DNA of 15,947 bases. Source: an uncultured Eubacterium sp. Its GTDB lineage: Bacteria; Bacillota; Clostridia; Lachnospirales; Lachnospiraceae. The stretch lies in assembly GCA_900548465.1 (NCBI GenBank), contig URKY01000047.1:1-15947 (forward strand). Reading direction: 5' to 3'. Position numbers and translations under genes: made by a program. The notes beneath the pieces were generated by a model. It was not told where the DNA came from. It ran no database searches and worked only from the letters and a program-made list of their open reading frames with translations. The stretch's first letter is position 1. Every line of letters begins with the position of its first letter. This document shows, one piece after another, positions 3,467-15,788 of the stretch.

Positions 3467-3482
3467 AATTATGGAGGTGTTT

Positions 3483-4310
3483 ATGAAGAAATTTGCAATA
3501 TTATCAGTTGATAAAAGACAACAATATATAAAAGATTTTTTGACGAAATCAGGTGCAAATGCATATATTAAAACCACAATGGATTTTAACAACGATGATT
3601 ATATAGTATGTGGAACACCTTTCTCAAAAAATAATGAATATTTAAACTGTGACTTTTATTCCAGTTATCCAATTAAAACTTTCAGTAGTTTATTAAAGCC
3701 CGGGCAAATTGTTTTTGGTGGAAATATTCCAAAATCTGTCATTGATATTAATAATGTAAAATTTGTGGATGTTTTGGCTGACGAAAATGTCGTATGGAAT
3801 AATTCAATGCTTACAGCTGAAGGTTTAATTTCAAAAATAATTGAAAATACTGATTATTCTATTTGTAATTCCTGCTGTCTGATTATCGGTTTTGGAAAAT
3901 GTGGCACTAATATTGCCTCAAGGCTTCAGCTTCTTGGATGTGAAGTTACAATATATGACCACACTCCCGCCCACTTAAGCCAAGCAGAATCTTTCGGATA
4001 TAAAACACAGGTATATGAAAATCTTATTTATAATATTAATAATTTTGATTTTATTATAAATACAGTAGAAAATCCGGTTTTAAAGCAGGAACATTTCATA
4101 AAAATCAAAAGTACCTGTTCTATCTTCGATATTGCTTCCGGAAATAGAGCTTTTGATAAAGAATTACTGCAAAAATATAATTTATCTCTTATTACATGCC
4201 CCGGACTTCCCGGTGCAACGTCACCAAAATCTGCCGGGGAATTAATTGCGAAAAGCATAATTTCATATTTAGAAAGGAATGAGATAAATGGTGCACAATT
4301 TCAAAGATAA
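3483..4310 (+). CDS. dpaA: Dipicolinate synthase subunit A
   Basis: Together with DpaB it makes dipicolinic acid from a lysine-pathway intermediate (4-hydroxytetrahydrodipicolinate or its dehydrated form) in the mother cell. The acid is then loaded with calcium into the spore core. The protein is 275 aa. A Rossmann nucleotide loop IIGFGKCG is at 134-141, preceded by the family signature TAEGLI (111-116), and the C-terminal block CPGLPGATSPKSAGELIA is at 239-256. This resembles B. subtilis SpoVFA over its whole length. I chose the ATG at 3483: GGAGGTG sits 5-6 nt before it, whereas an in-frame ATG at 3471 overlaps that site and probably the transcription start. The last 23 bases overlap dpaB, which points to coupled translation. 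Confidence 0.94.
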   Translation: MKKFAILSVDKRQQYIKDFLTKSGANAYIKTTMDFNNDDYIVCGTPFSKNNEYLNCDFYSSYPIKTFSSLLKPGQIVFGGNIPKSVIDINNVKFVDVLADENVVWNNSMLTAEGLISKIIENTDYSICNSCCLIIGFGKCGTNIASRLQLLGCEVTIYDHTPAHLSQAESFGYKTQVYENLIYNINNFDFIINTVENPVLKQEHFIKIKSTCSIFDIASGNRAFDKELLQKYNLSLITCPGLPGATSPKSAGELIAKSIISYLERNEINGAQFQR

Positions 4311-4893
4311 AAATATTGGTGTAGGAATCACAGGTTCATACTGTACCTACAAAAAAGTTTTTGAACAGTTAAAACGACTTGCAGATACAGGGGCTAATAT
4401 CTTTACCATTTTTTCCGACAACGCATCTACTACAGATTCCCGTTTTGGAAAAAGTAAGGATTTCCTTAAACTTGCCGAAGAAATAAGTGGCAAACCACCT
4501 ATTACTACAATACCTGATGCAGAACCCATTGGTCCTAAATCTATGCTTGATATTCTGATAATTGCTCCATGTACGGGAAACACATTGTCAAAACTTGCAA
4601 ACGGTATCTCAGATACCCCTGTCTTAATGGCAGCCAAAGCTCACCTTAGAAATAATCGTCCTTTAGTAATTTTTCTCAGCACGAATGATGCTTTAGGGAT
4701 GAATTTGAAAAACATCGGAATACTTCTTAATACAAAGAATATATTCTTTGTTCCATTTGGTCAGGATAATTATATTACCAAGCCAAATTCCATGATTGCA
4801 CACGTTGACCTTATTGAAGAAACAATTGAAAAAGCATTGGGAGGCAGACAAATCCAGCCTGTTATAAAAAGCCCACATGTTACCATATTATAA
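4288..4893 (+). CDS. dpaB: Dipicolinate synthase subunit B
   Basis: Flavoprotein-type partner of DpaA, 201 aa, close to the usual length of about 200. GVGITGSYCTY (11-21) is the N-terminal nucleotide/flavin loop of the flavoprotein fold. IIAPCTGNTLSKLANGISD (91-109) and the PVLMAAKAHLR stretch (111-121) are typical of SpoVFB. It starts inside the end of dpaA with AAAGGA about 9 nt upstream and ends 20 nt before asnB, so the three genes should share one transcript. Its presence together with DpaA shows the organism uses the dedicated synthase and not the EtfA route of some clostridia. Confidence 0.94.
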   Translation: MVHNFKDKNIGVGITGSYCTYKKVFEQLKRLADTGANIFTIFSDNASTTDSRFGKSKDFLKLAEEISGKPPITTIPDAEPIGPKSMLDILIIAPCTGNTLSKLANGISDTPVLMAAKAHLRNNRPLVIFLSTNDALGMNLKNIGILLNTKNIFFVPFGQDNYITKPNSMIAHVDLIEETIEKALGGRQIQPVIKSPHVTIL

Positions 4894-4913
4894 TGATATT
4901 TTAGGAGTTATTT

Positions 4914-6758
4914 ATGTGCGGTATTGCTGGTTTTTTTCAAACTAAACATGATGTATTTAAGGATTATTCATTTAATCTGTTAAAAAACCGACTGATAAAC
5001 ATGAAAAATTCTATTAAACATCGCGGACCTAATGATGATGATATATTTATGCGGGGATTTGCCGGTTTTTGCCACACCCGTCTTTCCATTCGTGACATTA
5101 AAGGCGGACATCAGCCAATGACCAGAAAATATAACGGGGACATTGCAACTATTGTGTATAATGGGGAACTCTATAACGCAGAGGAACTTAAAAGCCGTCT
5201 TATGGCATATGACATAGATTTAAGAACAACCAGCGATACCGAAATAATTCTTTACTGCTACCTTGTTTTTGGAACAAAAATCTTTAAAGATTTTAATGGT
5301 ATTTTTGCATTTGCCATATATGACAATAATAAATTAATTGTTGCCAGAGACCATGCGGGAGTTAAGCCGCTGTTCTACTACACTGATGAAAAGCAGTTTA
5401 TTTTCGCATCGGAAATTAAGGCTATATTTGAATACGGTATTACTCCTGAGCTTGACAATAACAGTTGGTGTGAAATCATTGCTCTTGGTCCTGCACATAC
5501 TCTTGGCAATGGAGTTTTTAAAGGAATAAAGGAAGTTCTTCCAGGACATTTTCTTTCCATAAAAACTGATTACACTAAAAACATCATTATGGAGGATTGT
5601 TGTTTCTGGAGTTTAAAAAGCTGTCTCCATACTGAAAATTATGAGGAAACCGTCTCCCACTGTAATTACCTTATAAATGACAGTATTAAAAGACAAATGG
5701 TATCTGATATACCTATATGTACATTTCTATCAGGTGGGTTAGATTCAAGTCTTGTATCAGCAATTGTCAGCGAAAATCTTGGTGAAAAGAAATTAAATAC
5801 TTTTTCTTTTGATTTTGTTGACAATGATATAAATTTTAAATCTAATTCTTTTCAATCCACAAGAGATAAACCTTTCGTAGATATTATGACTAATCATATT
5901 AAAAGCAATCATACTTATCTGGAGTGTGACAATATTGAACAGATTAACTGTTTATTTAAGGCAGTTGACGCCAGAGATATGCCATGTATGGCTGATGTGG
6001 AATCCTCTATGCTATATTTTTGTAATCTCGTTTCCAGAAGCTGTAAAGTAACCTTAACCGGGGAATGTGCAGATGAAATTTTCGGAGGGTATCCCTGGTT
6101 TCATAGAAAAGACTTATTATATAAAGATAATTTTCCATGGTCCTATGACATGTCTGCCAGATGTTCTGTATTTAAGGATGAGTTTATTAATGAACTGAAT
6201 CTTAAAGAATACAATTATGACGCTTATAAAACAAGCATTAATCAATGTCCTCTGTTAGATGGTGAAAATGAAAAAGAAGTTTATAGGAGAAAAATTTCAT
6301 GGCTTAATATCCGTTGGTTTATGATGACTCTTCTTAACCGAATGGATCGATGCAGCATGTATTCAGGACTTGAAGCCCGTGTTCCATTTGCTGATTACCG
6401 TATTCTTGAATATGTATTTAACGTTCCGTGGGAATATAAATGTCATAATAATCAAACTAAAAGTCTTCTTGTAGAATGTGGCAAAACTCATCTTCCACCG
6501 GAAATATTGTATAGAAAAAAGAGTCCTTATCCTAAAACATACGACCCTAATTACGAAAATCTCTTATCTGATATGCTGTTAGAGGAATACAGTGATAACA
6601 GTAGACTTCAGGATATAATTGATTACAAGAAGTTAACCACCTTCATCTCCAGCTCTAAAGATTATGGAAAACCATGGTATGGACAATTAATGGCCGGACC
6701 ACAAATGCTGGCATACGTTCTACAAATTGGATATTGGTTAAAAAAATATCATTTATAG
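4914..6758 (+). CDS. asnB: Asparagine synthetase (glutamine-hydrolysing), likely sporulation-linked
   Basis: Makes asparagine from aspartate, ATP and glutamine. The protein is 614 aa. The N-terminal class II glutaminase domain has the nucleophile Cys2 exposed after Met removal (MCGIAGFF), HRGPND at 36-41, RLSI at 56-59, and the glutamine-binding VYNGELYN (81-88) and SDTE (107-110). The C-terminal synthetase domain has the PP-loop SGGLDSS (273-279) and the GECADEIFGGY block (383-393). All catalytic motifs are intact. AGGAG lies 6 nt before the ATG. The gene follows dpaB by 20 nt in what looks like a sporulation operon. B. subtilis has a sporulation-specific paralogue of similar type, AsnO (YisO), so the same role is proposed here by context. 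A general housekeeping AsnB cannot be excluded. Confidence 0.93.
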   Translation: MCGIAGFFQTKHDVFKDYSFNLLKNRLINMKNSIKHRGPNDDDIFMRGFAGFCHTRLSIRDIKGGHQPMTRKYNGDIATIVYNGELYNAEELKSRLMAYDIDLRTTSDTEIILYCYLVFGTKIFKDFNGIFAFAIYDNNKLIVARDHAGVKPLFYYTDEKQFIFASEIKAIFEYGITPELDNNSWCEIIALGPAHTLGNGVFKGIKEVLPGHFLSIKTDYTKNIIMEDCCFWSLKSCLHTENYEETVSHCNYLINDSIKRQMVSDIPICTFLSGGLDSSLVSAIVSENLGEKKLNTFSFDFVDNDINFKSNSFQSTRDKPFVDIMTNHIKSNHTYLECDNIEQINCLFKAVDARDMPCMADVESSMLYFCNLVSRSCKVTLTGECADEIFGGYPWFHRKDLLYKDNFPWSYDMSARCSVFKDEFINELNLKEYNYDAYKTSINQCPLLDGENEKEVYRRKISWLNIRWFMMTLLNRMDRCSMYSGLEARVPFADYRILEYVFNVPWEYKCHNNQTKSLLVECGKTHLPPEILYRKKSPYPKTYDPNYENLLSDMLLEEYSDNSRLQDIIDYKKLTTFISSSKDYGKPWYGQLMAGPQMLAYVLQIGYWLKKYHL

Positions 6759-6978: not shown

Positions 6979-9588
6979 TTATTTTATCAAATAATTTTCC
7001 AATGAGTCACGGGGAGTGTTTATATGTGCGGATATTGCCTTCTCCACATTTTCTACTTCCTCTTTAAAGTTCATTGCTGACATACGAAGTGCACCATGTC
7101 CCATTATGATTAACTGTTCTAATGCATCTGATGTAGCTACGGTGACTTTGTATTTATTTGCCATTTGATGAGTTGTTTTGGCTATATACATATCTGCAGT
7201 CTCGGCTTCTTTTGTAAAGACTACATATATGTTGTTGTGTTTGTATATAGTTTCTTTGTGACGATTAACGTTGTATGCATCAAAAACTACAATTACCGTG
7301 TTTCCTTTGTATCCCTGATAATTTGACATTATATCAAGTAGTTTATCCCTTGCGCCGTCAATATTTACTTTGGCAACCTTATTTAATTCTTCCCAGGCAA
7401 AAATAATATTATAGCCGTCTACAAGAATACATTCAGGAAGATTATTATTAACTTTTCCTTTATATTTCTTTGTTCCTGATTTATTGTAGTTTCTAATTTT
7501 CGTTTCCTGATATTTTTTTCTTTTAACTTTTCCAAATGTCTTTTCAAAAATTGCCTCCAGTTCTTTATCTGTTGCATAAGAATCATAACTTTTGCTTTTC
7601 TGAATATTTTGTGGAGATTTTATGGAAATCTCTTCCTGAGGCTGACTATTATTTAGATTAAGTTCGGTTTTTACGTGCATGTAGTTTTCCACTTCATTCC
7701 ACGGAACATTGAATCCACTTCCGTGGGCACAGAAAACGGATCCTGTAGGATTTCGTAAATCAAGTTCACTGTCATATCCTTTTTCTGCAATAACCTCTTC
7801 GCTGTTATGACAGGGTGCATAGCCCTTAAATTTCAAAGTAAGAGTGCCCTTTCCGTGGGTATATTCATTTACGGTGTTTATATAATTCCACATTGTAGAT
7901 ACCGGTGCATAACCTGTAAGAACAGAAAATTCCTGACTGTTTTCCGGTTGGTTTACACTTCCACTCATTGCACAAATATCCGTCATTGCACGACCTACAT
8001 TTTCATTTGGAACTTTTAGAATAAAGTCATAATAAGGTTCTAACAAAGCAGAGTCTGCTTTTTTTAATCCCTGACGCACTGCACGATAAGTAGCCTGCCT
8101 GAAATCTCCACCCTCTGTGTGTTTTAAATGAGCCTTTCCACCAATAACTGTTATACAAATATCAGTTATCGGTGCCCCGGTAAGGACCCCTTTGTGAACC
8201 TTTTCTTCAAGATGTGTGAGAATAAGCCTTTGCCAGTTTCTGCTAAGTTCATTTTCACTTACATTACTTCTAAACTGTAAGCCGGTTCCCGGTTCTCCCG
8301 GTTCCATCATTAGATGCACTTCCGCATAATGCTTTAACGGTTCAAAATGTCCCACACCTTCAACTGTATCAAGAATAGTTTCCTTGTACAGAATACTTGC
8401 GGCCCCAAACTCAATCTCCATATTAAAACGCTCCTTTACAATCTGCTTTAATACTTCAATCTGAATTGGTCCCATAACATTTGCAGTTATTTCCTTTTTT
8501 TCTTCATTCCATGTTATTTTTAAAGTTGGATCTTCGTCTTCTAATTCCAATAATTGTTTATAAGCCAGATTTACATTAATATCTTTTGGAATAATGACTT
8601 TATATGCAAGAACAGGAACAAGACTTGGTTCAATTGACTCATTTTCAAATCCCAGTCCCTGACCTGAATATGTTTCATCTAATCCCGGTATAACGCATAC
8701 ATCTCCACCCTGAACCTTAGAAACAGATTCATATTTGTCCCCAGAATACAATCTTATTTCATTTACTTTTTCTTCCCAGTCTTTGGCTCCCCTGCTTGCT
8801 TTGATAATATCTTTTACATGAAGTTCACCGCCTGTTATTTTTATATGAGTAAGACGGTTCCCTTTATTATCTTTTGAAATTTTATATACCTTTGCACCGA
8901 AATTTTCATTGTAAACCGGCTCAAAGGTATAGTCATATAATCCTTCTATTAATTCTTCCACTCCATCCAGCTTAAGAGCCGAACCAAAAAAGCATGGAAA
9001 AAGCATTCTGTTATAAATAAGTTCAGATATAGTGTCTTTTTCTATTTTTCCTGTTTCCATATAATTTTCAAGAACGTCCTCATCACACATTGCAATATCT
9101 TCCAATGTTCCCACTCCTACAGGAAAACCAACTATTTTATCTGAGAGTTTTTCTTTAAGTTCATGTAACAAAAAATCACCGCTTACATTTGGCATATCCA
9201 TCTTATTTACAAATATAAAAGTTGGAATATTATACCTGTTAAGCAGTTTCCATAATGTTTCCGTATGTCCCTGAATACCTTCACTGGCACTTATAACTAA
9301 GACAGCATAATCTAGTACGGCTAAAGTCCTTTCCATCTCCGCCGAAAAATCTATATGTCCCGGAGTATCAAGAAGATTAATCCTCATATCCTTATAATCA
9401 AGAATAGCCTGTTTTGAGAAAATGGTAATTCCTCTGTCACGCTCCATTTTGAAAGTGTCTAAATATGCGTCTTTATGGTCCACACGACCTAATTTTTTTA
9501 TTTTTCCCGTTAAATACAATACTGACTCAGATAGAGTTGTTTTACCACTATCTACATGAGCCAGTATTCCTAATGTTATTTTCTTCAT
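6979..9588 (-). CDS. Tet(M)-like ribosomal GTPase fused to Rae1/YacP NYN endoribonuclease
   Basis: 869 aa, against about 640 for Tet(M). Residues 1-638 follow the EF-G/Tet(M) plan: G1 AHVDSGKTT (10-18), RGITI with Thr54, DTPGH (74-78), NKMD (128-131), SAL (203-205), then domains II-V, ending in a Tet(M)-like terminal helix (about 628-638). Residues 641-718 are a Lys- and Asn-rich linker. Residues 720-855 are an NYN/PIN-like nuclease with DGYNIIFAWEEL (724-735), VVFDAY (767-772), FTKEAETAD (791-799) and ATSD (818-821), closely like B. subtilis Rae1, which cuts mRNA in the ribosomal A site. The candidate acidic residues D724, D770, D799 and D821 are intact. The domain IV loop that in Tet(M) reads SPVSTP is KHTEGGDF here, so tetracycline protection is doubtful. 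The start is fixed by homology and has no ribosome binding site. It follows the response regulator by 39 nt. Confidence 0.9.
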   Translation of the reverse strand: MKKITLGILAHVDSGKTTLSESVLYLTGKIKKLGRVDHKDAYLDTFKMERDRGITIFSKQAILDYKDMRINLLDTPGHIDFSAEMERTLAVLDYAVLVISASEGIQGHTETLWKLLNRYNIPTFIFVNKMDMPNVSGDFLLHELKEKLSDKIVGFPVGVGTLEDIAMCDEDVLENYMETGKIEKDTISELIYNRMLFPCFFGSALKLDGVEELIEGLYDYTFEPVYNENFGAKVYKISKDNKGNRLTHIKITGGELHVKDIIKASRGAKDWEEKVNEIRLYSGDKYESVSKVQGGDVCVIPGLDETYSGQGLGFENESIEPSLVPVLAYKVIIPKDINVNLAYKQLLELEDEDPTLKITWNEEKKEITANVMGPIQIEVLKQIVKERFNMEIEFGAASILYKETILDTVEGVGHFEPLKHYAEVHLMMEPGEPGTGLQFRSNVSENELSRNWQRLILTHLEEKVHKGVLTGAPITDICITVIGGKAHLKHTEGGDFRQATYRAVRQGLKKADSALLEPYYDFILKVPNENVGRAMTDICAMSGSVNQPENSQEFSVLTGYAPVSTMWNYINTVNEYTHGKGTLTLKFKGYAPCHNSEEVIAEKGYDSELDLRNPTGSVFCAHGSGFNVPWNEVENYMHVKTELNLNNSQPQEEISIKSPQNIQKSKSYDSYATDKELEAIFEKTFGKVKRKKYQETKIRNYNKSGTKKYKGKVNNNLPECILVDGYNIIFAWEELNKVAKVNIDGARDKLLDIMSNYQGYKGNTVIVVFDAYNVNRHKETIYKHNNIYVVFTKEAETADMYIAKTTHQMANKYKVTVATSDALEQLIIMGHGALRMSAMNFKEEVENVEKAISAHINTPRDSLENYLIK

Positions 9589-9594
9589 ATTTTC

Positions 9595-9623
9595 AGTATA
9601 TCTTATGCTAATTTAAAATGCAA
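9595..9623 (-). promoter_or_regulatory. Candidate promoter of the GTPase-nuclease gene, possibly leaderless
   Basis: TTGCAT (9623-9618), then a 17-bp spacer and TATACT (9600-9595, 5 of 6 matches). Only six bases, GAAAAT, lie between the -10 and the ATG, so transcription would begin at or next to the start codon. There is no purine-rich Shine-Dalgarno sequence. The alternative is read-through from the response regulator gene, since no terminator lies in the 39-nt gap. Confidence 0.4.
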
Positions 9624-9627
9624 TTTT

Positions 9628-10458
9628 TTATTTACTGTTTCTGTAATCCTTAGGTGAAATTCCTTCATAATTCTTAAAAATTCTTGAAAAATGAGTTACA
9701 TCCTGAAATCCTACTATATCGGAAATCTCCTGTATCTTTGCTGTGCTTCCCTTTAACAGCTCTTTAGCTTTGTCTATACGAATTCTATTAACTATTTCAA
9801 AAAAACCTTTACCGGTATATTGATTTAATAATTTACTTAAATGCCAACTACTTATATAACAATGATCTGCTACATCCAATAAACTTAATTTTTGCACATA
9901 ATTATTGTACATATATATAATTGCTTTTTTTATTATGTAACTATTAGCATCATTAAAACGGATTTTGCTGTCATCATCATGCTGATTCAGTCTTTCTTTT
10001 ATAAAAGTATTATAAAGATATTTTTCATCTGAATTTTGGCAATCCCATATATTGTCTAAACCGCTTTCACCGGTCTTTCCTTTAGACTGAAGATTTTTTA
10101 TCATGGCATCAATTGCCTCTTCTAATTCGTCTATTTTAGATGGCTTAAGCAAAAATCTTGTAACTCCGAGCTTAATTGCCTGTTGTGCATATTCAAAATT
10201 CCTAAATCCCGTTAAAAGACAAACTTCAACGTTTGGATGTTCTGATTTAATTGCTGCTACCATAGCCAGCCCATCCATATTAGCCATAGATATGTCAGAT
10301 ATCAAAATATCCGGTTCAAGCTTTTTTACCAGTTCCAGACCTTCCATACCGCTGCTACCGGTTCCAACTATTTCACAGTTCCATTTTTCCCACTCTATTC
10401 CTTTTTGCAACCCTTCAACAATGATTGGCTCGTCATCCACAATAATTACCTTGTACAT
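9628..10458 (-). CDS. YesN-type response regulator with AraC DNA-binding domain
   Basis: Cytoplasmic transcription factor of 276 aa that should be phosphorylated by the sensor kinase encoded at 13953-15788. The receiver domain (1-120) has the acidic pocket D8-D9-E10, phospho-acceptor D55 (LISDISM), switch T83 and K105 (LKPS). A short linker, reduced compared with the roughly 370-residue YesN proteins, leads to an AraC-type domain at about 175-276, with two helix-turn-helix units (about 192-211 and 241-262) and the signature DIVGFQDVTHFSRIFK. The ATG at 10458 has AAGGAGA 7-8 nt upstream. The probable target is the sugar ABC transporter genes just upstream, by analogy with other YesMN loci. It has its own strong extended -10 promoter. 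Confidence 0.93.
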   Translation of the reverse strand: MYKVIIVDDEPIIVEGLQKGIEWEKWNCEIVGTGSSGMEGLELVKKLEPDILISDISMANMDGLAMVAAIKSEHPNVEVCLLTGFRNFEYAQQAIKLGVTRFLLKPSKIDELEEAIDAMIKNLQSKGKTGESGLDNIWDCQNSDEKYLYNTFIKERLNQHDDDSKIRFNDANSYIIKKAIIYMYNNYVQKLSLLDVADHCYISSWHLSKLLNQYTGKGFFEIVNRIRIDKAKELLKGSTAKIQEISDIVGFQDVTHFSRIFKNYEGISPKDYRNSK

Positions 10459-10481
10459 TTTGATTTCTCCTTCGCCAATAT

Positions 10482-10490
10482 ATTATACCA
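10482..10490 (-). promoter_or_regulatory. Extended -10 promoter of the response regulator
   Basis: TGG-TATAAT (10490-10482) is a perfect extended -10 element in the 47-nt gap after the permease gene. The start would be near 10475, with AAGGAGA inside a leader of about 17 nt. The -35 region (GTTAAA at 17 bp) is poor. It allows the regulator and perhaps the GTPase to be expressed independently of the transporter. Confidence 0.65.
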
Positions 10491-10505
10491 CAAAAAAGGA
10501 TAAAT

Positions 10506-11372
10506 TTAACCTTTTACTGCCCCTACTGTCATGCCTTTTATAATGTATTTTTGTAAGCAGATATATACAATCAAAACAGGTACTACAATAAGTGTAACTG
10601 ATGAGAATAACGCTCCATAGTTAACACCTTCTTTTGCAGAAATGTTATTTAAAAGAATTGTAATTGCCCAATTTTCCTTTGTTCTTAAGAAGAACATCTG
10701 AGTAAACAAATCATTATAGCTCCAGAGGAAGCTGAATATACCTACTGTTACAAAGGAAGGTTTGCTTAAAGGCATTATAACCTTAAAATAAATCTGGAAA
10801 ATGTTACAGCCTTCCATATAAGCCGCCTCTTCCAATTCCACAGGAAGTCCTTTTATATAACTTGACAGAACAATTATGGCAAAGGACATATTTCCCGCTA
10901 TTTGAGGTAGTATAACTGATATCAGATTTAGTCCTACACTATTTGTATTAGCAATTCCCCATGATGTAAGCATTCTCAGTACCGGAATGATTGTTGAATA
11001 AATTGGGAACATCATTCCTGCATACAATAATGCCATCAGTATTGCTTTACCTTTAAATTTGTATCTTGTAAGTACATAGGCAGCCATTCCTGAAAAAAGA
11101 ATTACAACAATGGCAACAGTTCCGGATATAATAAAACTGTTTTTGTATGCACTTAAAATATTATAATTTTCAAAAATATTCTTATAGTTATCTAATGAGA
11201 ACAAACTGCCAATAGGTAAGGAAAATGAGTTTGAATATATTGCTCTCTTGTCCTTAAATGAATTTACAACAGACCATACTAACGGAAAAATTGTAGTAAG
11301 TGCCCAGATTATTAAAAATACATAGATTACTATAGATGAAATTTTTATTTTTTGATTTCTTTTTTTTGCCAT
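10506..11372 (-). CDS. Sugar ABC transporter permease, MalG type (CUT1)
   Basis: Inner permease subunit of 288 aa with about six membrane helices, beginning with a hydrophobic helix at about 12-35. The EAA loop that docks on the ATPase is at 181-201 (EEAAYMEG...IMPLSKP), with the conserved Gly188. The C-terminus KGMTVGAVKG is typical of MalG-like subunits. GGAGG lies 8 nt before the ATG and overlaps the stop codon of the preceding permease gene, so the two are translationally coupled. Sugar specificity cannot be read from sequence. Oligosaccharides or plant-derived sugars are usual for YesMN-linked systems. Confidence 0.94.
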   Translation of the reverse strand: MAKKRNQKIKISSIVIYVFLIIWALTTIFPLVWSVVNSFKDKRAIYSNSFSLPIGSLFSLDNYKNIFENYNILSAYKNSFIISGTVAIVVILFSGMAAYVLTRYKFKGKAILMALLYAGMMFPIYSTIIPVLRMLTSWGIANTNSVGLNLISVILPQIAGNMSFAIIVLSSYIKGLPVELEEAAYMEGCNIFQIYFKVIMPLSKPSFVTVGIFSFLWSYNDLFTQMFFLRTKENWAITILLNNISAKEGVNYGALFSSVTLIVVPVLIVYICLQKYIIKGMTVGAVKG

Positions 11373-11384
11373 TTCTTCTACCTC

Positions 11385-12281
11385 CTATGCTTCATAATCA
11401 CTTTTTGTCTTAAACAGTCTGTTAACAACAAATGAAAGCACTACACCTATCAAAACAATTACGACACCAATTGCAGATGCATAATCTACATCAGAATAAA
11501 CATTTGAATACATATATGTTCCGGTTAACCAGGTATCTGCCATTCCTCCCGGGAACATTGTCCAAGGAAGGTCGAATACTTTAAGTGCACCTGTTACAGC
11601 TAATACAACACATGTACAAATGCTGTTTCTTAATAATGGAATGGTAATATACCTTACTCTTTGTAGTTTAGAAGCCCCGTCAATTGCAGCCGCTTCATAT
11701 AAATCCATTGGAATACCACTTAATCCTGTAAGCAAAATAACAAAGTAAAATCCTACATATTGCCATACTACCGGAATTAACATTGTCATTATTGAGTGTG
11801 AAGCTTTCCAATCAATCAATTGATTTTTTGAAGCATCCAACACTCCTATAAACTGCAGGAACTGGTTAATCATTCCTTTGTCATATAAGAATATAAGGTT
11901 AAATAATAAACCAAGTGCAGTTGCCGATACAACAATCGGGAAGAAATATACTACTCTGAAAAATCCTGATCCTTTTTTTATATTGCTTACTAAAAGTGCT
12001 AATATAAGGGCAATACCAACTTCGCCAACTATTGTTGCAACAATCATAATCCCTGTATTTTTCAATGCCAGTGACATCTTAGGGTCCTTAAATATATTTA
12101 TAAAGTTTTTAAATACCGGATTATTCCATTCACCTGATGCTGTTCCCATATATTTAATATGCTGAAAACTATTAATAATATTTCTCACAAACGGATAGTA
12201 AAGGAATACCAACATAAATATAAATGCAGGAATAAGGAAAAATATAATAATTTTTTTGTTTTTATAAATTCTTGCGTCCAT
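11385..12281 (-). CDS. Sugar ABC transporter permease, MalF/UgpA type (CUT1)
   Basis: Partner permease of 298 aa. Hydrophobic helices start at about 11-31 (IIIFFLIPAFIFMLV) and continue at about 78-100, 108-132, 166-190, 221-240 and 268-290. The EAA motif YEAAAIDG...ITIPLL spans 195-217. It lacks the extra periplasmic loop of E. coli MalF, as is usual for Gram-positive members. The ribosome binding site AAAGGT is weaker than that of the binding protein, and a strong hairpin lies upstream, which fits lower expression than the binding protein. The stop TAG overlaps the GGAGG of the next permease gene. Confidence 0.94.
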   Translation of the reverse strand: MDARIYKNKKIIIFFLIPAFIFMLVFLYYPFVRNIINSFQHIKYMGTASGEWNNPVFKNFINIFKDPKMSLALKNTGIMIVATIVGEVGIALILALLVSNIKKGSGFFRVVYFFPIVVSATALGLLFNLIFLYDKGMINQFLQFIGVLDASKNQLIDWKASHSIMTMLIPVVWQYVGFYFVILLTGLSGIPMDLYEAAAIDGASKLQRVRYITIPLLRNSICTCVVLAVTGALKVFDLPWTMFPGGMADTWLTGTYMYSNVYSDVDYASAIGVVIVLIGVVLSFVVNRLFKTKSDYEA

Positions 12282-12306
12282 TTATATATTACCTTTCTAA
12301 AAATAT

Positions 12307-12335
12307 AAGGGATTGTTGCTTAGCAACAACCCCTT
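12307..12335 (-). terminator. Hairpin between binding-protein and permease genes (partial terminator)
   Basis: Arms 12335-12323 and 12319-12307 form a 13-bp stem with a 3-nt loop. One pair is G-U on the minus-strand RNA and a mismatch on the plus strand, so it belongs to the minus-strand transcript. It is followed by ATATTTTT. In ABC operons such hairpins set a high binding protein to permease ratio by partial termination or by protecting the upstream mRNA 3' end. A weaker 7-bp hairpin (12352-12358 with 12367-12373) lies just before it. Confidence 0.75.
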
Positions 12336-12406
12336 TTGTTTCCTTTGAATCACTCATATAAACATCTATGAGTTGCAGTTTCTATTATGTTATTTACTAT
12401 TCACTT

Positions 12407-13705
12407 CTATTCGTTAGCTTTTTCAATAACCTGTTTTACAGCGTCTTTGATTGCTGTATCACCTTTAACGATTGAAGCCATTTCACCGAATATAGGTTTT
12501 CTAGCTGCATCTGACAATCCATCCTGTACTGCATTAGAGATTGCAGTAACGCCTGCTGTAAATGTAAGAGCATCTTTTGATAATGCTGAAAGATCTGATG
12601 CTGCTTCAGGAGCCTTCTTTAATGCTGTTGCTCCTGTTCCTGCGAATTTAGCTACCATTTCATCTGTTGTCATGTATTCAACGAAATCAACTGCAGCTTT
12701 ACGCTTTTCAGGATCATCCCAAGCTTTCTTTGTAATATAATAACCTGATGAAATACCGCCAATGATATCTGTTGTTTTACGATCACCCTTGCCAGGTACA
12801 TATGTTACTGTAAAGTTTCCAATTTTATCTTCTCCAACTGCATTTTCAATACCGCCGACTTTCCATGAGCCGTCGATAAGGAATGCTGCTTTGTCGTTTG
12901 TAAATAACTGGAATGTTTCATCATCCTTTGCTGTTAATGTGTTATCAGGTAAATATCCTTTTTCATATAATGTCTTGATATCACCTAAGCCGTTAACCCA
13001 TGCTTTTCCTGCAGCGTCATCAACCTTCTTTGGAAGTGTTGCATGTGTAGCCGGTGAATCGAAGTTATAAATTGAATATTCAAACCAATAATGTGGAATT
13101 TCCTGTAATGAAACTGCAATCGGTGTATATCCTGCTTTCTTAATCTTTTCACACATCTTCATGAAGTCATCCCATGTTGTGTTCTTGTCAGGTACATCAA
13201 CTCCGGCTTTCTTACATACTTCTTTATTAACAAACATACCTTCCCAGTATCCATTTACAGGAACTGAATAATTTTTGTTGTCTGTTGGAGAAGCTCCCAT
13301 TCTGTCATCCTGCATATTAGTTGCATATTCAGGATATTCTTTTCTGATTTCATCAATAGAAACTACCTTACCCTGCTCTACAAACTGGTTTGAGTCAACA
13401 CCGTTAAAGAAGAATAATACATCAGGTTCTGAACCTGTTTCAAAATCTGTAATAACTCTTGACTTAAATTCTTCATTTGATGTAGCTGATGAATCATCAA
13501 CCTTGTTTCCTGTTTTCTTTTCCCAGGCTGCAACCGCATCTTTATAATTCTGTGCGTTTGTATCTTCACCTGCAAATGTTGTTGTAACTCTCAATTTAAG
13601 TGCCTTCTTTTCACTTCCTGAATCGTTACTACCTGAACTACTTCCACAACCGGCTAATGTTAATGCCATAGTGCCGGCCAGTAATAAAGCTATCGCCTTT
13701 CTCAT
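12407..13705 (-). CDS. Sugar-binding lipoprotein of the ABC transporter (family 1)
   Basis: Extracellular solute-binding protein of 432 aa tethered to the membrane. A signal peptide with lipobox LAGC (17-20) puts the lipid on Cys20, followed by a Ser/Gly/Asn-rich spacer. The fold is the MalE/MsmE type, with the typical VNGYWEGMFVNKEV region and the Gly-Gly-rich hinge stretch near IIGGISSGYYITKKAW. I chose the ATG at 13705 because GGAGG sits 7 nt upstream and the signal peptide then starts correctly. A longer frame from 13753 would run through the ribosome binding site. It delivers sugar to the two permeases encoded downstream. The ligand is unknown. It is preceded by a terminator and an inverted repeat, so it is probably the first gene of the regulated transport operon. 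Confidence 0.94.
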   Translation of the reverse strand: MRKAIALLLAGTMALTLAGCGSSSGSNDSGSEKKALKLRVTTTFAGEDTNAQNYKDAVAAWEKKTGNKVDDSSATSNEEFKSRVITDFETGSEPDVLFFFNGVDSNQFVEQGKVVSIDEIRKEYPEYATNMQDDRMGASPTDNKNYSVPVNGYWEGMFVNKEVCKKAGVDVPDKNTTWDDFMKMCEKIKKAGYTPIAVSLQEIPHYWFEYSIYNFDSPATHATLPKKVDDAAGKAWVNGLGDIKTLYEKGYLPDNTLTAKDDETFQLFTNDKAAFLIDGSWKVGGIENAVGEDKIGNFTVTYVPGKGDRKTTDIIGGISSGYYITKKAWDDPEKRKAAVDFVEYMTTDEMVAKFAGTGATALKKAPEAASDLSALSKDALTFTAGVTAISNAVQDGLSDAARKPIFGEMASIVKGDTAIKDAVKQVIEKANE

Positions 13706-13744
13706 AATAAATCCTCCTATCTTTGCAAACACCTTTTTAATATT

Positions 13745-13771
13745 GTAATCCAATTATCGTCTATTGATTAC
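13745..13771 (-). promoter_or_regulatory. Inverted repeat over a candidate -10 upstream of the binding-protein gene
   Basis: GTAATCCAAT (13745-13754) and ATTGATTAC (13763-13771) form a dyad with one bulged base and an 8-nt centre. On the minus strand GATAAT (13758-13753, 5 of 6 matches to the -10) lies in its centre, with GACA-containing sequence 15-17 bp upstream. It could be an operator or a leader hairpin. AraC-type regulators more often bind direct repeats, so a second regulator is possible. No good match to a catabolite-responsive element was seen. Confidence 0.35.
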
Positions 13772-13808
13772 TTTGTCTGCATTAATTTTTATATTCATAA
13801 TTTTATAC

Positions 13809-13849
13809 AAAAACTGCCAATAAGTGAATGTATTTTATTGGCAGTTTTT
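13809..13849 (-). terminator. Strong bidirectional-type terminator after the sensor kinase gene
   Basis: CTGCCAATAA (13814-13823) pairs perfectly with TTATTGGCAG (13835-13844). The A and T runs on either side extend the stem to 15 bp around an 11-nt loop. On the minus strand it ends in TTTTTG, so it ends the pgm-kinase transcript and separates it from the transporter operon. The 103 bp between it and the kinase stop codon are plain AT-rich sequence in which I see no gene. Confidence 0.85.
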
Positions 13850-13952
13850 TGTTAATCGTTGGCATTAATTCATTTTTTATTGTTTTATTCAGTTAATTTT
13901 ACTATTTTTTATAGTGTTTTTTCTATTTTTTTATCATTTTTGTATAATTTCT

Positions 13953-15788
13953 TTAGTTTGGAAGGTTATTAAGTTCAATTACAATTCTGCTTACTGTCAA
14001 ATTGTCCTTTGGATTTTCTATTGTAAGACCACTTCCCTCACCGTACAATATTTTAAGTCTTCTGTTTACATTACGTATTCCAATATGATGATTGTCCACA
14101 TCAACGTCTTCATTGCTTAAAAGATAATCTATGTTTTCCTTGTCTTTTTCATTAATGTTACCATTATTATTTACTACAATATGAATACTGTTATCTTTTT
14201 TGTATATTTGAAGTTTTCCATCTCTGTTTCCATATACATCTCCACCGTGTTCAACCATATTTTCTACAAGTGGTTGAATAATTAATCGTGGAATCTTAAC
14301 TGACATAAGAGATTCATCTATTTCTTTTTCAAAATGAAATTTGTTTCCAAACCTTTGATCTATTATATACAAATAAGCATCAACATATTTCAATTCTTCC
14401 TTTATGGTAATAAAAGCCTCATTATTTCTATTCATGGTAGCTTCCATCATTATTCCTAAGGATTCAATCATTCCGCTAACATCATTATTTCCACTTATTC
14501 TTGCTTTCCAATTAATAATTTCTAATGTATTATTCAAAAAATGCGGATTAATCTGAGATTGTAAAGCACTCATTTTTGCATCTCGGACTGCAATCTCCTC
14601 AGCATATATTCTGTCAAAAGATTCTTTCAGACTTATAGACATATGATTAAAAGTATCAATTAATGTTCCAAATTCATTATTTAATTCTGCTTCCTTAATT
14701 TCACATCCATATTCACCATTTTTAATTTTTTCCGAAGCTTCTAATAACATAGAAATAGGATGAAGAATATTACCGTAAAAGTAATAGAATATTGCAAATA
14801 ATAACGGTATTAAAAGTATGGCAATAATAATACACACATACATTACCGTATTGTCCTGATTAAGCATTCCATGTCTGTCAAGACGCACTATAAATGAAAA
14901 TTTCTGATCATTAACACCCATACTCACATTGGCAAGACCTGTTGTTCTATTACATGCGTATTCAAGTGAATATTCATCTATCCTCTTGTTATTAAGTACA
15001 TTTTTCTTTGCATAGCTTAACATTTCCGCTTTATCTTTTTCTCCGCAGGAAGGTTCATGTACGATACTGTCGTCAACATATGCCAGAGTATCCTCACTCC
15101 AAACTACATTATATATGCTGTTAAAAATATATTTTTTATTTATTTCCATAACAAGAACAGCAATAGCTTTATATTCACTGTTTACAATATTTCTGACCAG
15201 ATATAAATGATTACCTACATTTACTAATTTAGTTCCCGTACCCAGATATTTGGCAACACTTGTAACCTTCAGTAATCCGTTAGACTTAAACTCATTAATA
15301 TTTGCATATGTAGAGTCTGCATTATTACTATATGTATAATATTGATAAGGAGTTTTCATATTATATAAAAGTATTGCACTGGAAATAACCGGGCTATAAG
15401 CATATGTTTTGCTTAAATATGCAGAAATTCTATCATACATTTTTTCATCATCCTTGTCTTCCAGATAATCATTATAACAGTCTTTAATTATCCCATCATA
15501 TGAAGGTTTCTTGGATTCCTCAATTGCCACCGATATGTTTGTTCTGCATATTTCGGCAGCATTTTTCATGGATGTATTAACTGTGTCTGCAATCTGATGA
15601 TTTGTTTTGGTTTTTGTTGAATAAAAAAGAGCAACAGACAAAGTCAGGCATGGAATAAACCAGCAAAACAATATTACACGAACCATTCCTTTTGTTAAAT
15701 TGGACTTTTTTAATTGGCTTATTTTTATAGCCTGAACACTGTTCTTTATTGTTTTTACGATTTTTTCTTTTTTACCTGCTTTGACCAT
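13953..15788 (-). CDS. YesM-type sensor histidine kinase
   Basis: Membrane sensor of 611 aa, partner of the response regulator at 9628-10458. A basic cytoplasmic N-terminus (many Lys in 1-34) is followed by TM1 at about 36-57, an extracellular sensor region of about 255 residues (58-312, Cache-like in position and size), TM2 at about 314-338 and a HAMP linker (about 340-392). The His_kinase domain has phospho-acceptor H416 in SQINPHFLNN (411-420), the N box LVENMVEHG (507-515) and the G2 box HIGIRNVNRRLKILYG (568-583). The G1 box, usually DNGxG, reads NNGNI (541-545), so its Asp is replaced by Asn. AAGGAGA is about 9 nt before the ATG. It starts 22 nt after the phosphohexomutase stop, implying one transcript. 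Confidence 0.93.
   Translation of the reverse strand: MVKAGKKEKIVKTIKNSVQAIKISQLKKSNLTKGMVRVILFCWFIPCLTLSVALFYSTKTKTNHQIADTVNTSMKNAAEICRTNISVAIEESKKPSYDGIIKDCYNDYLEDKDDEKMYDRISAYLSKTYAYSPVISSAILLYNMKTPYQYYTYSNNADSTYANINEFKSNGLLKVTSVAKYLGTGTKLVNVGNHLYLVRNIVNSEYKAIAVLVMEINKKYIFNSIYNVVWSEDTLAYVDDSIVHEPSCGEKDKAEMLSYAKKNVLNNKRIDEYSLEYACNRTTGLANVSMGVNDQKFSFIVRLDRHGMLNQDNTVMYVCIIIAILLIPLLFAIFYYFYGNILHPISMLLEASEKIKNGEYGCEIKEAELNNEFGTLIDTFNHMSISLKESFDRIYAEEIAVRDAKMSALQSQINPHFLNNTLEIINWKARISGNNDVSGMIESLGIMMEATMNRNNEAFITIKEELKYVDAYLYIIDQRFGNKFHFEKEIDESLMSVKIPRLIIQPLVENMVEHGGDVYGNRDGKLQIYKKDNSIHIVVNNNGNINEKDKENIDYLLSNEDVDVDNHHIGIRNVNRRLKILYGEGSGLTIENPKDNLTVSRIVIELNNLPN

What the first reader, a model, noticed from the sequence alone, without database searches (positions are those of the whole stretch)
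6979..9588. Ribosomal-protection-type GTPase fused to an A-site mRNA endonuclease domain
One frame encodes a complete Tet(M)/EF-G-like GTPase and, after a basic linker, a complete Rae1/YacP-type NYN domain with its acidic residues intact. Tet(M) family GTPases bind the factor site and reach the A site; Rae1 enters the A site and cuts mRNA. Joining them suggests a GTP-controlled factor that recognises ribosomes in a particular state (stalled, antibiotic-bound or with an unusual A site), cuts the message and perhaps resets the ribosome. I know of no experimental description of such a fusion, though the domain pairing may recur in related Clostridia.
Basis: partly seen in the sequence, partly recalled or inferred. 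Interest (0 to 1): 0.85.

Follow-up and report, generated by a model that had tools for sequence, protein, structure and literature searches.

The report
Ribosome GTPase fused to mRNA cutter
In many Clostridia the enzyme thought to cut mRNA inside stalled ribosomes is found only as the tail of a translation-factor-like GTPase that databases sometimes label a tetracycline-resistance protein, which suggests a widespread but untested way of handling stalled ribosomes.

Summary
Minus-strand ORF 9588-6979 (869 aa) encodes a complete Tet/EF-G-like GTPase, a variable basic linker and a Rae1/YacP NYN domain with its Asp residues intact. It is no assembly error: all 240 listed hits carry both parts. 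It is also in print: Atkinson 2015 noted the fusion in ten Clostridiales species, without experiment. Of 188 class-sample genomes with NYN_YacP, 105 have it as the fusion and 83 as a stand-alone gene; none has both. Trees are compatible with one fusion event. In 8 of 12 fused genomes yacP is missing between rlmB and sigH. The GTPase is a distinct subfamily: the Tet(M) drug-displacing proline is replaced by a lysine, and it scores well below NCBI's resistance cut-off. Best reading: this is these bacteria's only Rae1, brought to the A site by its own GTPase. Ribosome binding, cleavage and GTP control are inferred, not shown. Antibiotic resistance as main role is less likely.

The parts
6979..9588 (-). 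Whole gene: Tet/EF-G-like GTPase fused to Rae1/YacP NYN domain (869 aa; stop codon 6979-6981)
8914..9588 (-). G domain (about residues 1-225): P-loop AHVDSGKTT at 9535-9561, DTPGH at 9355-9369, NKMD at 9196-9207
   Evidence: Pfam GTP_EFTU 178 bits; motif positions; D74-H78 invariant in the 75 sequences
8614..8913 (-). Domain II (about residues 226-325)
   Evidence: Pfam EF-G_D2
8398..8613 (-). Domain III (about residues 326-397)
   Evidence: Pfam EFG_III
8053..8397 (-). Domain IV (about residues 398-512), the most conserved part of the protein
   Evidence: Pfam EFG_IV; mean column identity 0.78 over 101 fused proteins
8101..8130 (-). Domain IV tip signature HLKHTEGGDF (residues 487-496); K489 stands where Tet(O)/Tet(M) have Pro509
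   Evidence: H.KHT.GGDF in 99 of 101 fused proteins; alignment to Tet(O)
7804..8052 (-). Domain V (about residues 513-595)
   Evidence: Pfam EFG_C
7669..7803 (-). C-terminal extension (residues 596-640, SVFCAHGSGF...YMH); most stand-alone relatives end about here
   Evidence: ordered in the AF2 model; stand-alone C-termini; aligns to the Tet(M) C-terminus
7441..7668 (-). Variable basic linker (residues 641-716)
   Evidence: pLDDT mostly under 50 in the full model; mean column identity 0.28; family length 61-153 residues between H638 and D724
7531..7569 (-). Conserved linker motif DKELEAIFEKTFG (residues 674-686), predicted helix
   Evidence: E676 94%, I680 95%, T684 89% in 101 fused proteins; 29 pattern hits in the ORFs of L081-L201, all in fused genes or pieces of them; helix
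6982..7440 (-). NYN/PIN-type nuclease domain, Rae1/YacP family (residues 717-869)
   Evidence: Pfam 161 bits; PDB 5mq8/5mq9; D724, D770, D799, D821

Best explanation
This is the lineage's form of Rae1, the A-site mRNA endonuclease, permanently tethered to its own translational GTPase. SHOWN by sequence: both enzymes are complete and conserved; in none of the fused genomes sampled is there a stand-alone Rae1; the data are compatible with one fusion event; the GTPase belongs to a subfamily distinct from Tet(M) and EF-G. INFERRED: in the GTP state the factor binds the ribosomal factor site and pushes domain IV (HxKHTEGGDF tip) into an empty or stalled A site. Hydrolysis withdraws domain IV. The NYN domain, on a 61-153-residue basic linker, then enters the vacated A site (or that of the next collided ribosome) and cuts the mRNA, leaving a truncated message for tmRNA-type rescue. 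The GTPase would thus give Rae1 its recruitment and stall-sensing.
For: Architecture and intact motifs. Exclusivity: 105 fused, 83 stand-alone, 0 both among 188 genomes over cut-off; 63 of 63 fusion genomes tested (13, 50; three of them also lie in the class sample) have no stand-alone YacP, G322 having only an extra 25.2-bit hit in a 721-aa frame. 80 of 80 fused genomes tested have no separate GTPase of the subfamily. One fused clade in the GTPase tree (SH-aLRT 96); in the NYN tree one clade is not rejected (AU p 0.76). yacP missing from the rlmB-sigH interval in 8 of 12 fused genomes. Rae1 described as an A-site nuclease in PMC12320835 and PMC6613710 (passages). Domain IV is the most conserved region, the linker the least. 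The predicted GTPase part matches ribosome-bound EF-G and TetM.
Against: No ribosome binding, GTPase or RNase activity has been measured for any member in the papers found. Exclusivity follows simply if the only yacP copy was the one that fused, so it shows that the fusion carries the Rae1 function, not that the GTPase controls it. The stand-alone GTPase is not clearly tied to stand-alone Rae1 (10 of 55 genomes with Rae1 tested versus 8 of 100 without NYN_YacP; Fisher p 0.07). B. subtilis Rae1 is a lone gene, so no covalent GTPase is obligatory. Three stand-alone Rae1 genes (G173, G275, G256) group with the fused ones and could be re-separations. One fused copy (L199) lacks the P-loop, NKxD, tip and DG[YF]N patterns and another (L200) the P-loop and tip patterns. 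Domain IV and NYN would compete for the same site.
Confidence: 0.55

Rival explanations
1. Tetracycline (or other A-site drug) ribosomal protection protein that gained an RNase, as Atkinson 2015 suggested: it clears the drug from the ribosome and cuts RNA as part of resistance.
For: Best curated family is tet_protect (428 bits); best solved sequence match is TetO; the model aligns with TetM over residues 1-632 including the TetM C-terminus; some public annotations say TetM/TetW/TetO/TetS.
Against: 428 bits against a cut-off of 775. The tip residue that overlaps tetracycline in TetM, Pro509 (PMC7456112, passages), aligns with K489, invariant in the 75 sequences. One copy per genome in 79 of 80 fused genomes. 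Only 2 of 72,556 plasmid records have a place covering at least 80% of it, both large replicons typed non-mobilizable.
Confidence: 0.12
2. Recycling or splitting factor: the GTPase works like EF-G2 or mitochondrial EF-G2, splitting stalled ribosomes while the NYN domain destroys their mRNA.
For: Closest solved folds include EF-G, mitochondrial EF-G2 and Bacteroides EF-G2.
Against: The predicted structure shares the Tet-type C-terminal extension and the best sequence match is TetO; nothing seen points to RRF or subunit splitting, which was not searched for.
Confidence: 0.13
3. The NYN domain matures rRNA or tRNA, as first proposed for NYN domains; the GTPase tethers it to ribosomes during assembly.
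For: Atkinson 2015 cites this proposal (passage); stand-alone yacP sits beside rlmB and, by my reading, mrnC.
Against: Rae1, the characterised relative, is described as cutting translated mRNA or acting in the A site (PMC12320835, PMC6613710, PMC10100781, passages).
Confidence: 0.1
4. Chance gene fusion: two enzymes share a chain but act independently.
For: The linker is long, poorly conserved and mostly disordered in the full-length model. Three stand-alone Rae1 genes that group with the fused ones could be re-separations.
Against: Kept in 105 of 188 NYN-bearing genomes of the class sample and, by frame length, in 43 of 45 of an Erysipelotrichales-type order; a linker motif is conserved.
Confidence: 0.1

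Closest known systems
Clostridial Tet-NYN fusions noted by Atkinson 2015 (PMC4342817)
   Same: Same architecture: Tet-subfamily GTPase plus YacP-like NYN domain (passage)
   Different: Reported for ten species as a possible resistance mechanism; here it is the only Rae1 in 105 of 188 NYN-bearing class-sample genomes, and its tip differs from Tet(M)
Rae1/YacP of Bacillus subtilis (PDB 5mq8, 5mq9)
   Same: Same NYN fold and conserved Asp residues; 41-44% identity in structural matches
   Different: Rae1 is a stand-alone protein co-transcribed with yacO, the rlmB homologue (PMC6613710); here it is the tail of a GTPase at varied loci
Tet(M)/Tet(O) ribosomal protection proteins
   Different: About a third identical to Tet(O) (33%); no SPV tip; fails the curated resistance cut-off; rarely on plasmids (2 of 72,556 records with 80% cover)
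Elongation factor G / EF-G2
   Same: Domain order and switch motifs
   Different: EF-G alignments end near model residue 605, before most of the extension; no nuclease
RelE-type A-site mRNA nucleases
   Same: Cut mRNA in the A site (PMC12320835, passage)
   Different: Toxins of toxin-antitoxin systems with a different fold (recalled), no GTPase

Membership tests
Rae1/YacP (NYN_YacP, PF05991) | Profile match over the curated cut-off | tested here: met
   161.3 bits against 24.6
Rae1/YacP (NYN_YacP, PF05991) | Conserved acidic residues of the NYN active site | tested here: met
   D724, D770, D799 in 102 of 102, D821 in 101 of 102 (L199 left out); which of them are catalytic in Rae1 is recalled, not read
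Rae1/YacP (NYN_YacP, PF05991) | Translation-dependent mRNA cleavage in the ribosomal A site | not testable with these tools
   needs biochemistry; stated for B. subtilis Rae1 (passages)
Rae1/YacP (NYN_YacP, PF05991) | Stand-alone gene beside rlmB | tested here: not met
   here fused; yacP missing between rlmB and sigH in 8 of 12 other fused genomes. An organisational feature, not a defining domain feature
Translational GTPase, EF-G/Tet family | G domain with P-loop, RGITI, DTPGH, NKxD and domains II-V | tested here: met
   across 101 fused proteins the P-loop pattern matched 98, DTPGH 101, NKxD 96
Tetracycline ribosomal protection protein | NCBIfam NF012153 score over cut-off | tested here: not met
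   428.5 bits against 775; two stand-alone relatives 427 and 393
Tetracycline ribosomal protection protein | Domain IV loop 3 proline (TetM Pro509) that displaces the drug | tested here: not met
   aligned residue is K489, invariant in the 75 sequences; role of Pro509 from PMC7456112 and PMC8161019 passages
Tetracycline ribosomal protection protein | Raises tetracycline tolerance | not testable with these tools
   needs a deletion strain
Tet-NYN fusion of Atkinson 2015 | Tet-subfamily GTPase followed by YacP-like NYN domain in Clostridia | tested here: met
   the paper's own list of ten species was not seen

The most novel reading that the evidence does not exclude
A large part of the Clostridia, and probably of the Erysipelotrichales, handle stalled ribosomes with a GTP-switched A-site nuclease: a dedicated GTPase subfamily inspects the A site with its own KHTEGGDF tip, and its GTP cycle licenses the tethered Rae1 domain to cut the mRNA. 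A common set of 'tetracycline resistance' annotations would then be an intrinsic mRNA-surveillance and ribosome-rescue factor.
Probability: 0.33. Interest if true: 0.86.

Novelty: new variant of a known kind. Interest (0 to 1): 0.64.

Why it matters
How Rae1 gets to the A site and recognises which ribosomes to act on is, as far as I know, open. These bacteria may have answered it by covalently joining Rae1 to a translation GTPase, which makes recruitment directly testable. It also bears on resistance surveys: some genes of this family in gut commensals, such as Agathobacter rectalis, are annotated as tetracycline resistance although family members lack the drug-displacing tip residue and are present as one copy in 79 of 80 fused genomes tested.

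Tried and rejected
Assembly artefact: rejected.

Mobile resistance gene: 2 of 72,556 plasmid records and 2 of 50,697 phage records have a place covering at least 80% of the protein. The plasmid ones are replicons of 252 and 518 kb typed non-mobilizable. Of the phage ones, H9 is marked UNVERIFIED and unannotated; H10 was not opened.

Anti-phage system: no PADLOC family. Structured RNA leader: no Rfam match at gathering threshold in the window.

Conserved operon: the most widely shared neighbours (asparagine synthase and the dipicolinate pair) occur in 11 of 80 loci, the 11 nearest; all others in 7 or fewer. No functional partner could be read from context.

Differences between fused and stand-alone NYN domains (102 and 37 rows; three stand-alone rows that group with the fused ones left out): D724, N727, D770, D799, R747 and Q825 are shared; N730, present in 84% of stand-alone rows, is in no fused row; R835 falls from 100% to 80% and E840 from 100% to 60%. 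No interpretation made.

Second hits that are not Rae1: G149, G214 and G255 have a partial, below-cut-off match; G322 has a 25.2-bit match in a 721-aa frame. G261's only match is below cut-off, so it counts as without NYN_YacP. G237's 'stand-alone' NYN is a contig-cut fusion whose sequence overlaps the end of the GTPase contig. G144's GTPase without NYN runs off a contig end.

Papers I could not read because they are not held: Leroy 2017, Condon 2018 (distribution of Rae1), Gilet 2025, Deves 2023, Li 2013. Condon 2018 may already describe fused Rae1, so my scale and exclusivity results are not claimed as unpublished.

In one search one motif pattern (nD3) was written wrongly and matched nothing; the column counts of the same call were used for that residue. 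One search stopped with an error after printing the stand-alone contexts; the fused part was done.

Full report
OBSERVATION. The gene lies on the minus strand at 9588-6979, 869 aa. Pfam finds the EF-G/Tet domain series and then NYN_YacP at 721-864. The C-terminal part matches Rae1 of Bacillus subtilis by sequence (E 2.3e-27) and predicted fold. An alignment of 75 sequences, window included, shows invariant DTPGH, near-invariant P-loop residues, and invariant D724, G725, Y726, N727, D770 and D799. In 101 fused proteins the P-loop pattern matches 98, DTPGH 101 and NKxD 96; L199 and L200 are the clearly diverged ones and L060 is N-terminally incomplete. So both halves look like working enzymes in nearly all copies.

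A DISTINCT GTPASE SUBFAMILY. Domain IV is the most conserved region (mean column identity 0.78; linker 0.28). Its tip reads H.KHT.GGDF in 99 of 101 fused proteins; the two without it are L199 and L200. All 16 stand-alone relatives checked have H.KH..GGDF, and none of 8 outgroup proteins does. In the alignment to Tet(O) the SPV of the tip falls on L488-K489-H490. TetM Pro509, which overlaps the tetracycline site (passages in PMC7456112 and PMC8161019), therefore corresponds to a lysine that is invariant in the 75 sequences. A profile of domain IV plus extension gives uncut members of the subfamily 327 bits or more and other listed trGTPases 128 bits or less; copies cut by contig ends or frame breaks fall between or below. 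NCBI's resistance model scores 428 bits against a cut-off of 775.

DISTRIBUTION. In a class-wide sample drawn around Ruminococcus albus (291 genomes), 188 have NYN_YacP over its cut-off. I classed them by open-frame length and follow-up searches. 105 are fusions: 91 listed frames over 400 aa (a few of them contig-cut), 11 more, and three broken by contig ends or a frame break (G193, G064, G237). 83 are stand-alone. None has both; one genome has two fusions (G146). The other 103 have none over cut-off. Independent assortment would give about 30 genomes with both, though kinship makes that comparison rough. For 80 of the 91 listed fusions the GTPase profile was found right beside the NYN match, and at E 1e-50 nowhere else in the genome; a few more are confirmed and the others rest on frame length. 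Of the 80 loci, 63 genomes were tested and none has a stand-alone YacP (13 of 13; 50 of 50); 17 were not tested. In the order around locus L061, whose record title names Massilimicrobiota, 45 of 59 genomes have NYN_YacP, 43 of them in frames of 615-1109 aa; two are short (G389, G396). These were judged by frame length only, apart from L061.

HISTORY. In the NYN tree (143 rows) 101 of 102 fused rows fall in one supported cluster (100/98) with four rows labelled stand-alone; one of those is the contig-cut G237, the others are G173, G275 and G256. One fused long branch (L199) falls outside, joined with another long branch. In a thinned set (54 of 103 fused rows and 38 stand-alone; five long rows dropped, the other fused rows left out to thin) a single fused clade is not rejected (AU p 0.76) and fits better than the free tree found. 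So one origin is compatible with the data, and the three stand-alone genes may be pre-fusion forms or re-separations; G173 sits in the rlmB-yacP-sigH order. In the GTPase tree (61 fused rows, 16 stand-alone, 8 outgroup; quick method) the fused rows are one clade (SH-aLRT 96) with the stand-alone rows beside them (77). At least 27 of 40 stand-alone yacP loci have the order rlmB-yacP-sigH (gene names other than rlmB and yacP by my reading of sequence and order). In 8 of 12 fused genomes rlmB is followed directly by sigH, in three by another gene, and in one the cluster was not recognised. The picture is one fusion in which yacP left its ancestral operon and joined the end of a pre-existing GTPase.

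IS THE STAND-ALONE GTPASE LINKED TO RAE1? Only weakly. It occurs in 10 of 55 stand-alone-Rae1 genomes tested and in 8 of 100 genomes without NYN_YacP; one of the latter (G144) is probably a contig-cut fusion and one (G250) has a broken frame. 28 further stand-alone-Rae1 genomes were not tested. Partnership before fusion is therefore not established.

MECHANISM. PMC12320835 and two B. subtilis papers (PMC6613710, PMC10100781; passages) describe Rae1 as an A-site or translation-dependent endonuclease, proposed to act on stalled ribosomes. Tet-type GTPases overlap EF-G and tetracycline in the A site, and GTP hydrolysis is thought to serve their release (PMC8161019, passages). Putting them on one chain suggests sequential use of one A site: inspection by domain IV, GTP hydrolysis and withdrawal, then entry of the tethered NYN domain and cleavage. 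Acting on the neighbouring ribosome of a collided pair is an alternative that the linker length may allow. These steps are inference.

WHAT IS KNOWN. Atkinson 2015 reported that Tet proteins from ten Clostridiales species had gained a YacP-like NYN domain and suggested an RNase-based resistance mechanism (passages). No experimental study appeared in six searches of the held library. The paper on Rae1 distribution (Condon 2018) is not held, so I cannot say what it reports about fusions.

VERDICT. Observation confirmed; interpretation partly supported; architecture already in print; its scale, exclusivity, apparent single origin, vacated operon slot and distinct GTPase tip make it an interesting and testable variant of a known nuclease.

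Noticed in passing
window 9589-9640: No Shine-Dalgarno before the fusion's ATG; a TATACT box lies 6 bases upstream, so the mRNA could be leaderless. 33 of 54 starts checked (window included; 27 of 81 dropped as unreadable) have an SD-like site, and 9 of 54 a -10-like box this close.
   Followed up: partly
window 7531-7569: Conserved linker motif DxELxxIFExTYG with no Pfam match of its own, seen only in fused genes or their pieces among the ORFs of L081-L201.
   Followed up: partly
L226 (Agathobacter rectalis 252 kb replicon), L227 (Monoglobus pectinilyticus 518 kb replicon): The fusion sits on large plasmids typed non-mobilizable in two species and is annotated as tetracycline resistance in the first.
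   Followed up: partly
plasmid hits H3-H8: Ligilactobacillus salivarius plasmids of 214-249 kb carry a GTPase about 49% identical over residues 1-640, with no match to the NYN part at that place, annotated as TetM/TetW/TetO/TetS family.
   Followed up: no
L136, L137: GTPases of the subfamily in genomes (G220, G091) without an NYN_YacP match; they score above the other uncut stand-alone forms.
   Followed up: no
L152, L160, L176: Stand-alone Rae1 genes (G256, G275, G173) that group with fused NYN domains; G256 and G275 also have a stand-alone GTPase, so they may be close to the pre-fusion state, or be re-separations.
   Followed up: partly
L185 and L186: One genome (G146) carries two different fusions.
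   Followed up: no
L199: A strongly diverged fusion (G245) lacking the P-loop, NKxD, tip and DG[YF]N patterns; perhaps a decayed or repurposed copy.
   Followed up: no
window 3471-6758: Dipicolinate synthase A (DpaA_N) and a flavoprotein-domain gene, then asparagine synthase, convergent with the fusion; shared in its neighbourhood by the 11 nearest of 80 loci.
   Followed up: partly
window 9628-15788: ABC transporter (probably sugar) with a sensor kinase and an AraC-type response regulator, same strand as the fusion and ending 39 bases upstream of it.
   Followed up: no
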